Shown: positions 46,225-54,129 of the stretch, one piece after another
How the letters are laid out: the number at the start of each line of letters is the position of its first letter
Numbering within the stretch: position 1 is the stretch's first letter
Source: Leucobacter insecticola
GTDB lineage: Bacteria > Actinomycetota > Actinomycetes > Actinomycetales > Microbacteriaceae
Direction of reading: 5' to 3'
DNA length: 64,000 nucleotides
Assembly (NCBI RefSeq): GCF_011382965.1
Contig: NZ_CP049934.1
Location: 1,736,001-1,800,000 of the forward strand
Position numbers and translations under genes: made by a program
Notes under the pieces: generated by a model
The model's database searches: none
What the model saw: the letters and a program-made list of their open reading frames with translations, nothing else
Told to the model about the DNA's origin: nothing

Positions 46225-48360
46225 TTGTCTGCGGAAGTCGGCGTAGCCGGGGAGAATGCGGTCCCCGAGGCACACTGGGGTGGGTACACCTGGGCAGAAG
46301 CCGCTGGGGGTCGAGCGGTTGCGCAGGTGTTGCTCGACTCTGCGCTGCCACAGCTCGACCACCTGTTCGATTACGCGGTGCCCGCAGAGTTCGCGGAGAC
46401 GATTCGGGTTGGACAGCGGGTGCGTGTGCCGTTTCGCTCGCAGAGCCGCAAGACCTTCGGCTACGTCATTGGCTTCGTGGAGCGTAGCGAGTTCGGTGGG
46501 GAGCTCTCGCCCATCGCCGACATCGTCACCGAGGTGCCGCAGCTCACTCCAGACGTGTGGCGGCTCGCACGGGCTGTAGCGGATCGGGCCGGGGGATCCG
46601 CCGGTGACATATTGCGGCTCGCGATCCCGACCCGGCAGGTGCGCGTCGAAAAGAAACACCTGGCCGCGCTTGCGGAGGCCGCTGCGGCAGAGACGCCTGT
46701 TGCCAACCGGCCCGCGCAGGCGCCGGATCCTGAGCCCGCCGCTGCAACATCAGCACCCCCGGAAACCAAGATCGCTGCCGAGCTCGTGAAGGGCGCGCGA
46801 CTGTCGCACACGGCGTCTCACTCGCCGGAACGCCTGCACACGGGCGAGTGGGTGGGTGGCTGGGCGGCGCAGCTCGCGCGGGTGGCTCTTGGCGTGTTCG
46901 AGCTTGGCCGCAGCGTAATCCTCGTCACCCCCGACTACCGAGATCTGGATCAGCTGCGCGATGCGCTCACGGCGCTTGGCCATCCAGATTTCGTGCGGGT
47001 CGATTCCCGCCAGTCGAACTCTGAGCGCTACGCGAGCTTCCTACGCGCGCTTGATCCCGAGCCTCGGGTCATTCTCGGCAACCGCTCCGCGGTGTACGCG
47101 CCCGCATTCAATTTGGGGGCGGTGGTGACCTGGGACGACGGGGATCCCGTGCTCGCCGAACCGCTTGCCCCTTATGTGCACGCGCGTGATTCGGCGCTGA
47201 TTCGCGCGGAGCAATCGGGTGCCGGGCTGTTGTTTGCTGGGCACGTGCGCAGTGCCGAGGTGCAGCGGCTCGTGGATCTCGGCTATGTGCTCGCGCAGGT
47301 GCACCCGCCGCGCCGCACGCGGGTGTTTCACGCTGATGCGGCCCGTGCGCCCGACGCGTTTGCTGGGCGGGTACCCGAGTTTGCCGCGCAGACGATTCGT
47401 GAGGGGCTGAAGACTGGCCCCGTGCTCGTGCAGGTAGCGACCCCCGGTTATGCACCGGTGGCGGTGTGCGGCGACTGCGGCGACCTTGCCCGCTGCGGCA
47501 GCTGTGCCGGGCCGATTGGGTTCCGGGTGGTTGGGCGCGCGTCGTGCCGCTGGTGCGGCGAGTACGCGAATGCGTGGCGCTGTGGCAGCTGCGACAGTGC
47601 CCGGTTACAAGAGCGCGGCATGGGGTCGGCGCGCACCGTGGAGCAGTTCGAACGGCAATTTGCCGGGGTGCGGGTGCTGCTGAGTGACGGCGAACACCCG
47701 CGAGAGCGCGTCGATGCGCGCCCTGCTCTCGTTGTGGCGACCCGCGGCGCCGAACCGCTGGCCGCCGGGGGATACCGCGCCGTGGTGCTGCTCGACGCGG
47801 AGCGCCTGCTCGGCATCGAGACACTGCGGGCGGGTGAAGACTGCATGCGCTGGTGGGAGAATGCTGCGGCGCTTGCTGCGCCCGACGGCATGTGCCTGAT
47901 GGCGTCGGGCGGCGGGCCTGTGGTCACCGCGTTTGTGACGGGTCGCAGCGACGAATGGCTGCGGGGCGAATTACGGGATCGCCACGCGCTGCGTTACCCG
48001 CCGGCCGTGCGAGTGGCGAGCGTGAGTGGCGGATCCGAAGAGGTCGCGCGGGCGTTGGAGACGATCGCGGAGATCCCGGGCGTTGACTACCTGGGGCCGG
48101 CACCCGTGCCCCAGCAGATTGGCGGGAATGCGGGACCCGGCGGCGGATCGCGGCAGGCTGGCGGGCTCTCGGCTCACCTCGTGCGAGCGATCGTCCGCTT
48201 CGACTACGGACATGGCGCTGAGGTCGCGAAGCGTCTGCGCGGCGCCCTCGTAGCTGACGCTGCGGGATCCAACTCCCGGACCCGCGGCCGCACCCCCGGT
48301 CGCGCCCGCCCCGAGGCTCTCCGCCTCCGCTTCGACGACCGCGGTGTGTTCGACGGCTAA
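46225..48360 (+). CDS. priA: PriA-like primosomal protein N', ATPase motifs lost
   Basis: Replication-restart protein of 711 residues. The N-terminal DNA-binding domain (VAQVLLDSALPQLDHLFDYAVPAEF) and the zinc-binding region with eight Cys (CGDCGDLARCGSC, then CRWCG and CGSC, about residues 415-460) are conserved. Where helicase-type PriA has GVTGSGKT and DEEH there is WVGGWAAQLARVALG and TWDDGDP, so it cannot be a working helicase. Loss of these motifs is usual for actinobacterial PriA. Start TTG 46225 is the only candidate in frame close to homology; the ribosome site is weak. Confidence 0.9.
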   Translation: MSAEVGVAGENAVPEAHWGGYTWAEAAGGRAVAQVLLDSALPQLDHLFDYAVPAEFAETIRVGQRVRVPFRSQSRKTFGYVIGFVERSEFGGELSPIADIVTEVPQLTPDVWRLARAVADRAGGSAGDILRLAIPTRQVRVEKKHLAALAEAAAAETPVANRPAQAPDPEPAAATSAPPETKIAAELVKGARLSHTASHSPERLHTGEWVGGWAAQLARVALGVFELGRSVILVTPDYRDLDQLRDALTALGHPDFVRVDSRQSNSERYASFLRALDPEPRVILGNRSAVYAPAFNLGAVVTWDDGDPVLAEPLAPYVHARDSALIRAEQSGAGLLFAGHVRSAEVQRLVDLGYVLAQVHPPRRTRVFHADAARAPDAFAGRVPEFAAQTIREGLKTGPVLVQVATPGYAPVAVCGDCGDLARCGSCAGPIGFRVVGRASCRWCGEYANAWRCGSCDSARLQERGMGSARTVEQFERQFAGVRVLLSDGEHPRERVDARPALVVATRGAEPLAAGGYRAVVLLDAERLLGIETLRAGEDCMRWWENAAALAAPDGMCLMASGGGPVVTAFVTGRSDEWLRGELRDRHALRYPPAVRVASVSGGSEEVARALETIAEIPGVDYLGPAPVPQQIGGNAGPGGGSRQAGGLSAHLVRAIVRFDYGHGAEVAKRLRGALVADAAGSNSRTRGRTPGRARPEALRLRFDDRGVFDG

Positions 48361-48383
48361 CCAGATACTCTCACGCCCGCGGC

Positions 48384-48480
48384 GAGGTCCCACGATAGTT
48401 GCGAGGTCCCATGATAGTTGCGAGGTCCCACATAATTTACGCTTGGTTTTCGTGGGACCTCGCCATAATCGTGGGACCTC
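48384..48480. repeat. Five 19-bp units (three direct, two inverted) between priA and trpB
   Basis: GAGGTCCCAC/T starts at 48384, 48403 and 48422, exactly 19 bases apart (full unit GAGGTCCCACGATAGTTGC). After an 11-base spacer come two inverted copies, GTGGGACCTC at 48452 and 48471, again 19 apart. The halves can form a stem of about 29 bp. The rest of the 267-base convergent gap (48490-48627) shows no further feature. Most probably a bidirectional transcription end or a mobile palindromic repeat. Confidence 0.8.
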
Positions 48481-48627
48481 ACCAGAGTCTCTCGCTCTGC
48501 GCAATAGCTCGAGCTACCAGTTCCACTGGCCCGAGTCCCAAACCCCAAGCCGACTCTAGTCTCGCGGATACTTCGCGACGTATTCCTCAATTACGACACC
48601 TGCTTCGAACGAGCGGGCTGGCGCCCC

Positions 48628-49836
48628 TCAACCCCGCAGTCGCTCGGCGACGAAATCAACGTCCTTGTCGCCGCGCCCCGAGAGATTCGCAATGATGATC
48701 CCGTCACGCGGCATGCTCGGTGCGAGCTTGATCGCTTGGGCGAGCGCGTGCGCGGATTCGAGCGCAGGAATGATCCCTTCCTTGCGGGTGAGAAGCTGAA
48801 AGGCCGCCAGGGCTTCCTCATCGGTGACGGACACGTACTCGGCGCGGCCAATCTGTTCGAGGTGCGCGTGCTGCGGCCCAACTCCCGGGTAGTCGATCCC
48901 GGAGGCGATCGAGTGCACCGATGATGCGTTGCCGTCTGCATCCTGCAGTACCTTCGTTTTCATGCCGTGCAGGGTGCCGGGGGTGCCGAGCGTCATGGTG
49001 GCCGCGTGCCGATCCCCGTCGAGGCCTTCACCCGCGGGCTCGACACCGATGATGCGCACCGACTCGTCTTCAAGGAAGGCGTCGAAGAGTCCCATCGCGT
49101 TGGATCCGCCACCGACCGAGGCAACGAGCACATCGGGTAGGCGGCCCTCGGCTTGCAGGATCTGGGCGCGCGCCTCGCGGCCCACAACTGACTGGAAATC
49201 GCGCACCATCGAGGGGTAGGGGTGGGGACCCACGACCGAGCCGATCGCAAAGAAATACTCGTCGGGTGCGGAAGCGTAGACAGCGAATGCCGAGTCAACC
49301 GCCTCCTTGAGCGAGCGGCCGCCCTCCTCAACCGCGACGACCTTGGCTCCGAGCAGCTCCATCCGCACGACGTTCGGGTGCTGCTTTGCGATATCGATCG
49401 CACCCATGTGGATCTCGCACTCGAGCCCCACCAGCGCCGCCGCGGTGGCGAGGGCGACGCCGTGCTGCCCAGCCCCGGTCTCCGCGATCAGCTTCTTCTT
49501 GCCCATACGCTTTGCGAGCAGCGCCTCGCCAAGACAGTGATTGATCTTGTGGGCGCCGGTGTGGTTCAGATCCTCGCGCTTCAGGTAGATCCTCGCACCG
49601 CCCAGCTCCTCGCTGAGGTTCTCGGCGAAGTAGAGCAGCGAGGGGCGGCCAACGTAGCGGCTGAGCAGTGCCTGGAGCTGATCCTGAAACTCGGGATCCT
49701 GGGCGGCCTCGATATACGCCTCGGCCACTGCGGCGATCGGCTCAGCGAGGAACGGGGGCAAGTCGGCGCCCCCGAATTCGCCGAAGAATCCCGCGGAGTC
49801 TGCGCGGTAGCGAGAGGGAGATAGGGTCTCGGTCAT
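48628..49836 (-). CDS. trpB: Tryptophan synthase beta chain, solitary copy
   Basis: Condenses indole and serine to tryptophan with PLP. 402 residues; PLP Lys97 in [22 protein letters not shown] [15 protein letters not shown], the phosphate-binding GGGSNAMG and the C-terminal SGRGDKD. This is the standard TrpB1 type, but no trpA follows: the next gene downstream is convergent priA 267 bases away. A trp operon beginning with trpE lies 12 kb off at the end of the window, so a second trpB is likely beyond it. Expression should depend on the attenuator directly upstream. Confidence 0.94.
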
Positions 49837-49968: not shown

Positions 49969-50046
49969 GACCAGTAGTGTAGCAGCAGCGTGTCGACATC
50001 GCGGGAAAACTGGGAAAGCTACCTCTACTCCGGAGTGTGTGGCGCC

Positions 50047-50134
50047 AACCCGGCACCAGCGAAAGCTGCGAGAATAGCGGGATGCGGATCGTCTTTGCGG
50101 GAACCCCCGAGTTTGCCGTGCCCAGTCTGCGGGC
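50047..50134 (+). repeat. 88-bp direct repeat, upstream copy (fmt 5' end)
   Basis: Identical at 87 of 88 positions to 53177-53264 (A versus C at 50058/53188). It carries 35 bases upstream of fmt, the fmt ATG (50082) and its first 53 coding bases. The sequence upstream of 50047 still shows weak similarity to that upstream of 53177 (about 10 of 13 bases if a short gap is allowed). This is the left boundary of the inserted helicase segment. Confidence 0.92.
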
Positions 50135-50189
50135 TCGCGCTGAGACACTCGGGCTCCGTTTTGAGAACCGAGAGGTCTCTGATGGCTGA
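50082..50189 (+). pseudogene. Truncated fmt start, 35 codons, coupled to the helicase
   Basis: The displaced fmt beginning MRIVFAGTPEFAVPSLRA runs on into insert sequence and stops at TGA 50187-50189. That stop overlaps the helicase start in ATGGCTGA, so ribosomes that begin at the fmt signals would end exactly at the helicase ATG. It is either a dead fragment or a functional coupling leader; the near-perfect conservation with the real fmt start suits recent insertion or a retained role. Confidence 0.75.
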
Positions 50190-53176
50190 TCTCGAAACGG
50201 TGGTTGGTGCACAGCCACTCGCGGAGTGGGAGTTCGCGGGTCAGCTGCGGCACTCCCAAGCTGCGATCCTTGACGCGGTCGATGTTGTTTCCGGATCTCC
50301 GCTTCACATTGTGGCTCCGCCAGGCTCCGGCAAAACGCTGGTGGGGTTGCTCTTGGCGATGCGCGCCGGTGCGCCAGCGCTTGTGCTGTCTCCCACGACA
50401 ACGATCCGCGGTCAGTGGGCAAAAACGGCACGGCAACTCGCGGCCCGCACCTGGGGTGAGGATGAACCACAGGTGCCGTTGGCGGAGGTATCAGAGGACC
50501 CGCGAGCGATCGGGGATCTGACCGCGCTGACCTATCAGATGCTTGGGACAATCGACTCGAGTAGCCCATTCGATCAACTCGCTGAGCGCGCGTGGGTCGC
50601 CGAACTTGTTGAAGGTGGGCGCTCGATTCCTGACGCTGAATCCTGGCTCGAACACCTTGCGCAGGCAAACCCGAAGGCGCATCGCCAGGGGATCCGACGT
50701 CGGGCCGGTCGACTACGCAAAGAAGTTGTGCGTGAGGATCCTTCGCGCCTCGAAGAGGCCTTGCACCCGAATGCCCGCGAACTCATCGAACGTCTCGTCG
50801 AGCGTGGGGTGACCACGCTGATTCTTGATGAGTGTCACCACCTTCTCGACTACTGGGCGATCGTTGTTCATTGTCTCGCTGGCCGGATTCGCGAGCGTGG
50901 AGTTGAGCCGGTCATTGTTGGGTTGACCGCGACGCTGCCGTCTGAAGAAGACCAGGAAGCCTACGAAAACTACACCGGACTTCTCGGAGACGTCGACTAT
51001 GAGGTTCCCACGCCCGCCGTTGTCAAGGAGGGTAATCTTGCGCCCTACCGTGATGCGGTGTGGTTCGTGACGCCGGAGGACGATGAACTGGAGTTCTTGA
51101 GCGCGCAGCAGTCCCGATTCGAGGCGTTAGTGAAGGGCATTCTCGAGACCCCGGAGGGGGTGGAGTTTCTTGCCCAGAAACTGTGTGGTCAGAGATTCCT
51201 TAATTTGAAGTCGACGGAGCGGGATCGACGTCTCGCTGAAGCTTTCAAACTCGATTTCGCGTTTACGGAAGCGGCTGCGGCTGTCTTAGCTGAGGTCTCT
51301 CCAGGGCACCTGCTGCTGCGCACGCTCGGCCATGATGCGCCGCGCGGTGCGACAATGGAACAGCGCATCCGCGTGCTTGCGCGATATGCGCTGGAGCACA
51401 TGCTGCCCGACCCCGCGCGTGAGCAGCTTTGGAAAGACACGCGGGGTCTGCTGTCAGATCTCGGGTATCACCTGACCGACCGGGGGATTCGCCGCGGGCG
51501 AGACCCCGTCGACCAGGTGCTCGCGACATCGCGTTCCAAAGACTTGGCGGTGGGGGAGATCCTGCGCCTTGAGATGAGCCGCGAGGTCAGAGAAGAAATT
51601 CGCGCGGTGGTCATCTTGGATTTTGCCGTGCACGGACACGGTGTCGGTTCTGGCCGCGGTAGGGCCGGAGCGTTACGGTGTTTCGATTCTGTTGTCGAGG
51701 ATCCGACACTTCACGCTTTTCGACCGGTTCTGATGACAGCACAACATCTGCGCATCGCGGCCCGGGACGCGGCAATTCTTGTGCCGAAACTGCGGGAGAA
51801 ACTCAATGCGGAAGTTGCGGTAAGTGCAGAACACAACGGCGTGTTGACCCTCGAAACACCGGGCACCGGCACATCCGCCCTGGTCGAGGCCGTCTCGCAG
51901 ATGATCGCCGAAGGGGTGGTACGGCTCCTCGTAGGTACACGGGGCCTCTTGGGTGAAGGGTGGGACTGCCCCGCTATCAACACGCTGATTGACCTGTCGA
52001 CTTCTTCGACCTCCGCTGCAACACAACAGCTCCGAGGACGCTCGCTGCGCATTGATCCCGGCTGGCCCGCAAAGGTCGCGCACAACTGGACGGTCACCTG
52101 CCTGCCGAAGGCACGAAGCTCAATCGAGGGAGCCAGCGATGTTGCTCGGATGCGCAGAAAACAAAGCAAGTCATGGGGCATTACGGTGACGGAACCGGCC
52201 TCAGTGGTTCGTGGTTTAGGACACACCCTCACGGTTGCCCAGATAGGGCAGCTCGAGCAGATTCTCGACAAAGTTGCGACGGCGCGAGACGTGCGATGGC
52301 TCAACAGTGAAACTGAACGCACGCTGCCTTCACGCCAGCACACCCGCGACCGCTGGGGCATCGGTGAACCCTACCTCGGACAGGAACGCCGACAACTCGT
52401 TGCGCGCGCCGAAACCGCTGGTGTGCTTCGAAGCCCACCGACTCTCGATGTGCTGTTGCTCATGCTGTTGGGGGGTGCGGGCGGAATATTCGTCGAAGCA
52501 TTGCGTGTGGCGCTTCGCGCCTCCCAGGGAGACGCATGGGTCACACTGATTATTGCTGCACTGGGCATAGCACTCTTCACGTATCTGGCACGCGATTCGA
52601 TCCGCTCGCTTTTCCAGGGACTTCGCTCATTTGCGCTTCCGGGGAGTGCCTACCAGGGCGCGGCTCTTGCGCTTGCCCGAACCCTGCACCGCCGGGGTGA
52701 CTCCCGGGCGTTCGGTCGTGCAAACATTGTGGTGGCTCAGGTAATGGCAACACCGCGGGTGGTTGCCCATCACCTTGTCGAGGTGAAAGGCGGCAACATC
52801 GCCGAGCAGCAGGCGATTCTTGGTGGTCTGAGAGAAATATTCGGCCCGATACGCACACCGAGATTCCTTCTTGAGGTCGGACAATCGCAGCTGAAGTGGC
52901 CGACAGCGCTCACCTGGTTTGCCGGCCTGATCACGCGGCTTCTGACCCGGCGCTCCCGTTTTGTCAACGTGCCTCGTGGGGTCGCACGCCGTCGGGAAGA
53001 CGCTATGGTGTTTGCCGAAGAATGGCGGAGAAGTGTTGGCCCGTGTGTGCTGCACGAGATCAACTCGTCGGATCAGCTTTCGCTCCTCACGCGTGCTCGG
53101 CGCAGTAACGGGCCAGCGCTCGACCGTTCCGTCGTTCGGGATGTCTGGGCATAGTCCAGCGTGTCGCCCCCGCCGT
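50135..53176. mobile_element. Inserted segment (about 3.04 kb) bounded by fmt repeats
   Basis: The segment between the two 88-bp repeats holds only the helicase. No transposase, integrase or resolvase is present, and no terminal inverted repeats are seen, so the mechanism is unknown: integration by a recombinase acting from elsewhere, or homologous/duplicative capture. The integration rebuilds an intact fmt at the right junction. The 22 bases between the helicase stop and the right repeat hold no feature. Confidence 0.6.
50182..53154 (+). CDS. Large membrane-anchored SF2 (DEAD/DEAH-type) helicase in an insertion
   Basis: A 990-residue protein with superfamily 2 motifs: Walker A APPGSGKT (45-52), motif II DECH (216-219), motif III TAT (249-251), motif V GTRGLLGEGWD (about 585-595) and motif VI QLRGRSLR (about 616). 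A long insert separates the two RecA lobes. Two membrane helices follow (about 753-775 and 785-803), then a domain of about 185 residues without a recognised fold. Such an anchor is unusual for an SF2 helicase. ATG 50182 is chosen over the longer open frame from 49990, which runs through the repeat. Function unknown; solitary, mobile-looking SF2 genes are often defence genes, but no nuclease or partner is encoded here. Confidence 0.88.
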   Translation: MADLETVVGAQPLAEWEFAGQLRHSQAAILDAVDVVSGSPLHIVAPPGSGKTLVGLLLAMRAGAPALVLSPTTTIRGQWAKTARQLAARTWGEDEPQVPLAEVSEDPRAIGDLTALTYQMLGTIDSSSPFDQLAERAWVAELVEGGRSIPDAESWLEHLAQANPKAHRQGIRRRAGRLRKEVVREDPSRLEEALHPNARELIERLVERGVTTLILDECHHLLDYWAIVVHCLAGRIRERGVEPVIVGLTATLPSEEDQEAYENYTGLLGDVDYEVPTPAVVKEGNLAPYRDAVWFVTPEDDELEFLSAQQSRFEALVKGILETPEGVEFLAQKLCGQRFLNLKSTERDRRLAEAFKLDFAFTEAAAAVLAEVSPGHLLLRTLGHDAPRGATMEQRIRVLARYALEHMLPDPAREQLWKDTRGLLSDLGYHLTDRGIRRGRDPVDQVLATSRSKDLAVGEILRLEMSREVREEIRAVVILDFAVHGHGVGSGRGRAGALRCFDSVVEDPTLHAFRPVLMTAQHLRIAARDAAILVPKLREKLNAEVAVSAEHNGVLTLETPGTGTSALVEAVSQMIAEGVVRLLVGTRGLLGEGWDCPAINTLIDLSTSSTSAATQQLRGRSLRIDPGWPAKVAHNWTVTCLPKARSSIEGASDVARMRRKQSKSWGITVTEPASVVRGLGHTLTVAQIGQLEQILDKVATARDVRWLNSETERTLPSRQHTRDRWGIGEPYLGQERRQLVARAETAGVLRSPPTLDVLLLMLLGGAGGIFVEALRVALRASQGDAWVTLIIAALGIALFTYLARDSIRSLFQGLRSFALPGSAYQGAALALARTLHRRGDSRAFGRANIVVAQVMATPRVVAHHLVEVKGGNIAEQQAILGGLREIFGPIRTPRFLLEVGQSQLKWPTALTWFAGLITRLLTRRSRFVNVPRGVARRREDAMVFAEEWRRSVGPCVLHEINSSDQLSLLTRARRSNGPALDRSVVRDVWA

Positions 53177-53264
53177 AACCCGGCACCCGCGAAAGCTGCG
53201 AGAATAGCGGGATGCGGATCGTCTTTGCGGGAACCCCCGAGTTTGCCGTGCCCAGTCTGCGGGC
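53177..53264 (+). repeat. 88-bp direct repeat, downstream copy (functional fmt start)
   Basis: Partner of 50047-50134. It provides the working fmt start at 53212. GAGAAT six bases before the ATG could be a -10 for a leaderless fmt transcript; this is a weak prediction. After 53264 the sequence continues as fmt, whereas the upstream copy continues as insert sequence. Confidence 0.92.
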
Positions 53265-54129
53265 ACTGCTCAATGCTGGCCACGAGGTTGTCGGGGCGGT
53301 GACCCGCGAGGACGCGCCCCTGGGGCGTAAGCGTGTGCTCACCCCGTCCCCGGTCGCTGTTGTAGCCGCGGAGGCCGGGATCCCGACGCTCAAGGCGAAC
53401 CGGCTCGGCGAAGAGGCCACGGCTTGGGTTCAGGATCTCGCTCCCGATCTTGGCGTGATCGTCGCCTACGGTGGGCTCGTGCGCGAGCCACTGCTCTCGC
53501 TGCCGCGGCTCGGCTGGGTGAATCTGCACTTTTCCGAGCTGCCCAGGTGGCGCGGGGCGGCTCCCGTGCAGCGGGCGCTGCAGGCGGGCGAACAGCGCCT
53601 CGGTGTCACGGTGTTTCGGCTGGTCGCCGCCCTCGACGCTGGCGACGTGCTCACCCGCGACGCGAGTGACTTCCCCGCGGGGACCCCGGCAGGTGAAGCG
53701 CTCGCCGCACTCGCTGAGAGTGGCACGGGCGCGCTGCTCGCGGCGGTTGATGGGCTCGGAAGCGGTGCACTGACGGGTGAGCCGCAGACGGGTGAGCCGA
53801 GTTATGCGCACAAGCTTGAGCGGGAAGACGGACGGCTTGACCTCACGCTGCCTGCCGCCCAAGTGCTCGCCCACTGGGCTGGAGTGACCCCGGAGCCCGG
53901 CGCGTTCGTGATGGTGGATGAGAAACCATTGAAGGTCTTAAGCTTGCGGGCCGTGGAACGTGGCGATGAGATTCAGGATCCTGCCACGGCCTCGATCCGC
54001 GGCGGCAGGGCGATCCTGCAGCTTGCCGACGGTGACCTCGAACTCGAGCGCGTGCAGCCGGCGGGCAAAGCGGCGATGGACGGTGCGGCGTGGCTTCGTG
54101 GCCGCGGCGGGAAAGCGGTGGTGCGATGA
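53212..54129 (+). CDS. fmt: Methionyl-tRNA formyltransferase
   Basis: Formylates initiator Met-tRNA using 10-formyl-tetrahydrofolate. 305 residues: FAGTPEFAVPSLRALL, the VIVAYGGLVREPLLSLPRLGWVNLHFSELPRWRGAAPVQRA catalytic block (Asn/His), LDAGDVL with the Asp, and a C-terminal OB-fold with the SYAHKLEREDGRLD loop. Its first 53 bases lie in the direct repeat, but the gene is intact. The peptide deformylase gene, its functional partner, lies at 1418. It overlaps rsmB by 4 bases. Confidence 0.96.
   Translation: MRIVFAGTPEFAVPSLRALLNAGHEVVGAVTREDAPLGRKRVLTPSPVAVVAAEAGIPTLKANRLGEEATAWVQDLAPDLGVIVAYGGLVREPLLSLPRLGWVNLHFSELPRWRGAAPVQRALQAGEQRLGVTVFRLVAALDAGDVLTRDASDFPAGTPAGEALAALAESGTGALLAAVDGLGSGALTGEPQTGEPSYAHKLEREDGRLDLTLPAAQVLAHWAGVTPEPGAFVMVDEKPLKVLSLRAVERGDEIQDPATASIRGGRAILQLADGDLELERVQPAGKAAMDGAAWLRGRGGKAVVR

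What the first reader, a model, noticed from the sequence alone, without database searches (positions are those of the whole stretch)
50047..53264. Helicase gene inserted at the fmt start between 88-bp direct repeats that rebuild fmt
Seen: 50047-50134 and 53177-53264 match at 87 of 88 bases, each with the fmt upstream region, ATG and first 53 coding bases. Between them lies one large gene for an SF2 helicase with two membrane helices, and no recombinase. The displaced fmt start runs 35 codons and its stop overlaps the helicase ATG (ATGGCTGA). Inference: a single-gene mobile unit that integrates at the fmt 5' end, restores the host gene downstream and takes the fmt promoter and translation signals for its cargo. 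Targeting the 5' end of an initiation-factor gene without a visible integrase would be new to me. The cargo may be a defence gene.
Basis: partly seen in the sequence, partly recalled or inferred. Interest (0 to 1): 0.82.

Follow-up and report, generated by a model that had tools for sequence, protein, structure and literature searches.

The report
Helicase insertion scar before fmt
A helicase gene that in some relatives sits right behind the gene priA was carried, together with the last bit of a priA gene, into the start of the neighbouring gene fmt; the most likely cause is ordinary DNA recombination, not a mobile element with its own machinery.

Summary
An 88-bp direct repeat (87/88) holds the fmt upstream region, ATG and 53 coding bases, flanks one intact SF2 helicase gene, and was found at no third place in the genome.

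The dedicated mobile-unit reading is not supported. The bases between the left repeat and the helicase ATG encode a degraded PriA C-terminus: 10 of 17 residues, BLOSUM62 score 46; the best other stretch end in the window, priA itself aside, scores 18 (1,665 compared). In two same-genus genomes the helicase directly follows priA, and its ATG overlaps the priA stop as it overlaps the stub's stop here. The 35-codon stub is thus an in-frame fmt-priA chimera.

The three nearest relatives have an uninterrupted trpB-fmt site. I found no comparable repeat in 52 other genus loci or at 25 other helicase loci. No recombinase lies between the repeats.

Best model: a donor fragment [priA tail-helicase-fmt start] circularised and entered by one crossover in the fmt start. 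Open points: the donor order priA-helicase-fmt was not found, and a degraded tail beside a near-perfect repeat needs homogenisation or a two-step history.

The parts
46225..48360 (+). priA (host copy, C-terminus GRARPEALRLRFDDRGVFDG)
   Evidence: names given to its relatives
48628..49836 (-). trpB; in 23 of 52 genus loci it lies within 300 bp of fmt (uninterrupted site)
50047..50134 (+). left copy of the 88-bp repeat: fmt upstream region, ATG and 53 coding bases
50067..50075 (+). extended -10-like TGCGAGAAT, 6 nt before ATG (left copy); TGnGAGAAT precedes fmt in 47 of 52 genus loci, suggesting a leaderless fmt mRNA
   Evidence: the promoter reading is inference
50082..50189 (+). 35-codon chimeric leader ORF: 18 codons of fmt fused in frame to 17 codons like the PriA C-terminus
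50136..50189 (+). degraded priA 3' end (RAETLGLRFENREVSDG and stop), remnant of the helicase's former neighbour
   Evidence: score 46; best other of 1,665 stretch ends, priA aside, 18; 0 of 200,000 shuffles; no other genus locus has a second such tail; one chance-level score of 24
50170..50175 (+). GAGAGG, Shine-Dalgarno-like, 6 nt before the helicase ATG
   Evidence: sequence printed; reading by eye
50182..53154 (+). SF2 helicase, 990 aa, XPB/Hef-like core, helical insertions, two long hydrophobic helices, C-terminal alpha/beta region
53155..53176 (+). 22-bp helicase-fmt intergenic stretch, outside the 88-bp identity; shares CAGCGTGTCG with 49986-49995
   Evidence: (family D13)
53177..53264 (+). 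right copy of the 88-bp repeat, at the start of the intact fmt
53212..54129 (+). fmt, intact (305 aa)

Best explanation
This is an insertion scar left by ordinary host recombination. The helicase belongs to an accessory family; in two genus members it sits directly behind priA, with its ATG overlapping the priA stop. A piece of donor DNA running from the last priA codons through the helicase to fmt codon 18 had its ends joined (possibly at a shared CGGGC), making a circle. One crossover in the fmt start then put it into a chromosome that had trpB directly before fmt. This leaves an fmt start on each side, keeps native fmt whole, puts the helicase behind a copy of the probably leaderless fmt promoter, and fuses fmt codons 1-18 in frame to a priA tail whose stop still overlaps the helicase ATG. 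Shown: the repeat, the priA-like tail, the priA-helicase arrangement in two relatives, the uninterrupted sites, no recombinase between the repeats, no recurrence in the loci examined. Inferred: the circle, the single crossover, the microhomology, the promoter, and expression of the helicase by translational coupling.
For: PriA tail: 10 of 17 residues, score 46; among 1,665 stretch ends of the window only priA itself scores higher and the next is 18; 0 of 200,000 shuffles reach it. Among 12,868 stretch ends of the 52 other loci, apart from the 44 intact priA tails, the best score is 24. Same stop/start overlap in G019 and G035: GATGGGTAG against GATGGCTGA; in the third carrier, G033, the contig starts inside the helicase. 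In G019 and G035 the helicase lies between priA and trpB, in G033 upstream of trpB. The window's helicase is sister to the group that holds these three (SH-aLRT 92, under the 95 mark, long branch). The three nearest relatives have trpB directly before fmt and no helicase there. No comparable repeat elsewhere in the loci examined. In 12 of 52 genus loci priA lies directly before fmt, so a priA-helicase-fmt donor is conceivable. Precedent: in E. coli, duplications of the homologous segment were found in 56 of 60 selected clones, 109-950 bp in the 14 sequenced, and attributed to single crossover of a recircularised molecule (PMC3240628, passages seen).
Against: No genome with the predicted donor order priA-helicase-fmt was found; the three carriers all have trpB between helicase and fmt. 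The two halves of the stub look different in age: the tail differs from the host priA at 18 of 54 bases, the repeat copies at 1 of 88 (Fisher p 5e-8, a crude test). A single recent transfer needs either a tail already degraded in the donor or homogenisation of the repeats. No PriA with this tail was among the 11 hits of a search for it. The CGGGC microhomology is inferred from other priA ends, not seen in the donor. The marker tree has no support values.
Confidence: 0.6

Rival explanations
1. Tandem duplication in an ancestor with order priA-helicase-fmt, joining fmt codon 18 to the priA tail; later the first helicase was replaced by trpB through homologous exchange between priA and the fmt start.
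For: Gives the same in-frame junction and the same repeat. The priA-fmt interval is variable in the genus: 23 of 52 loci with trpB next to fmt, 10 with trpB further away, 19 without trpB in the fetched stretch. The abrupt end of identity at 50047/53177 fits an exchange of the upstream part.
Against: Needs two events and a helicase in the direct ancestor, while the three nearest relatives lack it at this locus and in their genomes only weak helicase matches or none were found. The tail is not closer to the host's own priA (36 of 54 bases) than to other priA genes (best 37).
Confidence: 0.2
2. Homology-facilitated illegitimate recombination of a linear donor fragment: the right end paired with fmt, the left end joined illegitimately inside recipient fmt.
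For: Same end product. The process is described for natural transformation and proposed for stepwise gene arrays in Vibrio (PMC5361080, passages seen).
Against: In the E. coli experiment 56 of 60 clones were duplications attributed to circles and only 4 of 60 appeared to be this process (PMC3240628, passages seen). The final sequence cannot separate the two.
Confidence: 0.1
3. A dedicated mobile unit that integrates at the 5' end of fmt and is moved by an integrase supplied in trans.
For: Clean repeats with a whole target gene resemble dusA and prfC elements (PMC8409611, passages seen). The genome does have four phage-integrase-family matches elsewhere that could act in trans (some may be housekeeping Xer recombinases, not tested).
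Against: No integrase between the repeats (by eye) and no match of that family in the window; no copy of the fmt start found in 52 genus loci; no comparable repeat at 25 other helicase loci; the insert begins with a priA tail, which an integrase unit would not explain.
Confidence: 0.07
4. Assembly artefact.
For: Only one genome shows the structure.
Against: The genome is one contig of 2.92 Mb, the repeats are short and 3.1 kb apart, and the insert carries an independently recognisable priA tail and an intact gene.
Confidence: 0.03

Closest known systems
Insertion of recircularised linear DNA by single crossover (E. coli, PMC3240628, passages seen)
   Same: Insert flanked by a direct duplication of the homologous host segment; no recombinase in the insert; duplication lengths of the same order (109-950 bp there, 88 bp here).
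   Different: Natural event with an unknown donor; the junction happens to make an in-frame leader ORF.
Homology-facilitated illegitimate recombination proposed to build gene arrays (Vibrio type VI immunity arrays, PMC5361080, passages seen)
   Same: New gene enters beside a conserved anchor and the old gene is kept.
   Different: Here a gene start is duplicated, not an immunity gene displaced.
Integrative elements at gene 5' ends (dusA elements, SXT at prfC; PMC8409611, passages seen)
   Same: Insertion at the start of a translation-related gene, which stays expressible.
   Different: Those are moved by an integrase and recur at the site; neither was seen here.
SF2 helicases of the XPB/Hef type (PDB 5tnu, 1wp9)
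   Same: Helicase core by sequence and fold.
   Different: Large helical insertions, a hydrophobic helix pair and an unidentified C-terminal alpha/beta region.

Membership tests
Integrase-driven element at a gene 5' end | Carries an integrase | tested here: not met
   by eye: no other large gene between the repeats; no phage-integrase-family match in the window (four elsewhere in the genome)
Integrase-driven element at a gene 5' end | Flanking direct repeats with the target gene whole | tested here: met
Integrase-driven element at a gene 5' end | Recurs at the same site in relatives, with other cargo | tested here: not met
   no fmt-start copy found in 52 other loci, some on short contigs
Integrase-driven element at a gene 5' end | Excision as a circle | not testable with these tools
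   needs PCR or reads
Homologous-recombination insertion scar | Repeat equals a segment of the host locus | tested here: met
Homologous-recombination insertion scar | One illegitimate joint with donor flanking DNA dragged along | tested here: met
   priA tail at 50136-50189 joined to fmt codon 18
Homologous-recombination insertion scar | A donor with the matching gene order exists | tested here: inconclusive
   priA-helicase seen in two genomes, priA-helicase-fmt in none
Known anti-phage defence gene | Strong match to a PADLOC family | tested here: not met
   best PbeA, E 4.3e-6, partial
SF2 helicase | DEAD/ResIII domain and helicase fold | tested here: met

The most novel reading that the evidence does not exclude
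The 88-bp repeats make the helicase a self-contained 3,130-bp cassette that the host's own recombination can excise as a circle and reinsert at the fmt start of other cells. It would be a gene that moves between relatives at a conserved promoter without any recombinase of its own, with the promoter and leader copy kept alike by repeated exchange, which would also explain why the repeat is near-perfect beside a degraded priA tail.
Probability: 0.12. Interest if true: 0.6.

Novelty: new member of a known kind. Interest (0 to 1): 0.36.

Why it matters
It shows in readable form how an accessory gene can move from one neighbour to another without a mobile element, take a housekeeping promoter and keep its stop/start overlap through an in-frame chimera of two genes. 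It also warns that a clean repeat with a whole target gene is not by itself evidence of an integrase. The repeat predicts measurable loss of the helicase by recombination, so its persistence would be a test of selection.

Tried and rejected
Recurrent fmt-start targeting: blastn of each fmt start (-150 to +250) against its own upstream region in 52 genus loci gave only short matches (14 to 50 bp, E up to 0.01), none a copy of promoter plus ATG; upstream lengths vary from about 0.4 to 17 kb with the contig. A repeat-flanked helicase elsewhere: 25 other loci, none. In one search some flanks were misplaced (L058 start taken too far upstream, L131 end at an internal TGA), so I repeated it with flanks set from the protein match: best 32.8 bits (L139, 73% over 73 columns) against 155 for the window; L057 has no real left flank, and six short loci have 0.8-1.6 kb. 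A phage or plasmid carrier: phages 2 partial matches, plasmids 1 partial match, viral contigs 2 short matches; a DNA search of plasmids matched only the fmt part, in one record. Helicase beside fmt or priA outside the genus: 0 of 16 loci have metK, priA, trpB, fmt or rsmB nearby at E 1e-5. A PriA with the stub's tail: none among 11 hits. Whether the repeat reaches further left (CAGCGTGTCG at 49986 and 53157) remains open; the alignment there is poor. Literature: one search for elements at fmt gave five papers, listing only, none on this by title; two searches gave nothing useful.

Limits: the cargo ORF listing stopped with an error before its last loci and was not repeated; its ORF calls are mechanical. 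The marker tree (47 rows, no support values) left out G033, G017, G024, G072, G026 and G013 for too little sequence. G071 had no full fmt match and was not fetched. G060-G076 were searched for the helicase at the fmt locus only, not genome-wide, except those that happened to draw. Searches scored only two candidates per genome, used strict E-values, and their tallies include the window's own genome.

Full report
Observation. The two 88-bp repeats exist as described, match at 87 of 88 bases and flank a single 990-aa SF2 helicase gene. A search of the genome found one helicase of this family and two copies of the repeat. The repeat holds TGCGAGAAT 6 nt before the fmt ATG. TGnGAGAAT stands 6 or 7 nt before ATG in 47 of 52 genus loci (43 and 4), and a Shine-Dalgarno-like core is found in 9 of 52. 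Fmt is therefore probably leaderless, and the repeat probably carries its promoter and start; this is inference. The genus is inferred to be Leucobacter, because the two named PriA relatives are from Leucobacter; the genome itself is unnamed.

What lies between repeat and helicase. The stub ORF reads MRIVFAGTPEFAVPSLRA-RAETLGLRFENREVSDG-stop. Its second half aligns without gaps, up to the stop, with the PriA C-terminus (RPEALRLRFDDRGVFDG in the host), of which 44 of 52 genus loci hold an intact, closely matching copy. The score is 46 with 10 of 17 identities; among 1,665 open stretches of at least 17 codons in the six frames of the window the only higher score is priA itself and the next is 18; none of 200,000 shuffles reaches it (best 34). 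At the DNA level 36 of 54 bases agree with the host priA; the best other of 1,461 + strand stops in the window, priA aside, reaches 28. Among 12,868 stretch ends of the 52 other loci the best score apart from intact priA tails is 24.

Where the helicase comes from. Genome-wide, it was found at full or near-full length in 3 of 36 same-genus relatives (G019, G033, G035; the other same-genus matches are short). The fmt loci of 52 relatives show it in the same three genomes. In G019 and G035 it lies between priA and trpB; in G033 it lies upstream of trpB and the contig starts inside it. In G019 and G035 its ATG, by my choice of start, overlaps the priA stop (GATGGGTAG), the same geometry as in the window (GATGGCTGA). 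In a tree of 60 helicases the window sequence is sister to a seven-row group with these three (SH-aLRT 92; long branch 0.7). Elsewhere the helicase is rare: 16 of 396 genomes of the order at E 1e-40 and 8 of 398 of the family at E 1e-60, own genome included, with only two candidates scored per genome. A protein search nonetheless finds 1,609 relatives in large collections. Outside the genus it lies at unrelated places (16 loci), near genes such as a prolyl-type tRNA synthetase, a class I tRNA synthetase, YchF or BipA.

Uninterrupted sites. Of 52 genus loci, 23 have trpB within 300 bp of fmt, 10 have trpB further away, 19 have no trpB in the fetched stretch (some contigs are short), and 12 of these 19 have priA within 300 bp of fmt. 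The three nearest relatives by distance in a four-gene tree, G034, G023 and G032, all have trpB directly before fmt. None of the 52 showed a copy of its fmt start upstream, only short partial matches.

Mechanism. A fragment [priA tail-helicase-fmt start] whose ends join, followed by one crossover in the fmt start, gives the repeat, native fmt kept, the priA tail upstream, the helicase alone inside and no recombinase. This kind of outcome has been seen experimentally: 56 of 60 E. coli clones had a duplication of the homologous segment, and 14 sequenced ones measured 109-950 bp, attributed to single crossover of a recircularised molecule (PMC3240628, passages). Tandem duplication and homology-facilitated illegitimate recombination (PMC5361080, passages) give the same product and cannot be separated from it by this sequence. 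The in-frame fusion keeps the leader's stop over the helicase ATG, with a Shine-Dalgarno-like GAGAGG before it; coupling is inferred. An integrase acting in trans is not excluded: the genome has four phage-integrase-family matches, none in the window.

What does not fit. The tail differs from the host priA at 18 of 54 bases, the repeat copies from each other at 1 of 88 (Fisher p 5e-8, crude), and no PriA with this tail was among 11 hits. Either the tail had degraded in the donor, or the repeats have been homogenised. The repeat copies are also closer to each other than to any of the relatives compared (best 76 of 88), so the donor's fmt start must have been very like the host's, or was made alike. 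The donor order priA-helicase-fmt was not seen.

The helicase. The profile of 64 relatives matches Brr2, Hef, XPB and RadD types weakly over the core. The AlphaFold model (mean pLDDT 83.6) matches XPB, Hef, FANCM and DRH-1 cores with low TM-scores. PADLOC gives partial, weak matches, best PbeA. One distant relative (L137) lies just behind a complete Wadjet operon. A defence role is possible but not shown.

Noticed in passing
L137 6521-17675: A distant relative of the helicase lies directly downstream of a JetABCD (Wadjet) operon, with one 399-aa gene without a Pfam or PADLOC match between.
   Followed up: partly
48381-48483: Inverted GCGAGGTCCCACGA-type repeats between priA and trpB; with one mismatch allowed, clusters also at 911934-911996 and 2383330-2383373 of the genome contig.
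   Followed up: partly
L056, L058, L073, L074, L079, between trpB and fmt: A roughly 5-kb block between trpB and fmt with an ORF of about 1,200-1,400 aa (split in L058) and usually one of about 470-550 aa upstream; shared by several genus members, function not determined.
   Followed up: partly
L131 (G258) about 9339: The helicase gene of this genome has an in-frame TGA and may be a pseudogene.
   Followed up: no
L104 (G067), upstream of fmt: trpB lies on the + strand, unlike in the other 32 genus loci that have it.
   Followed up: no
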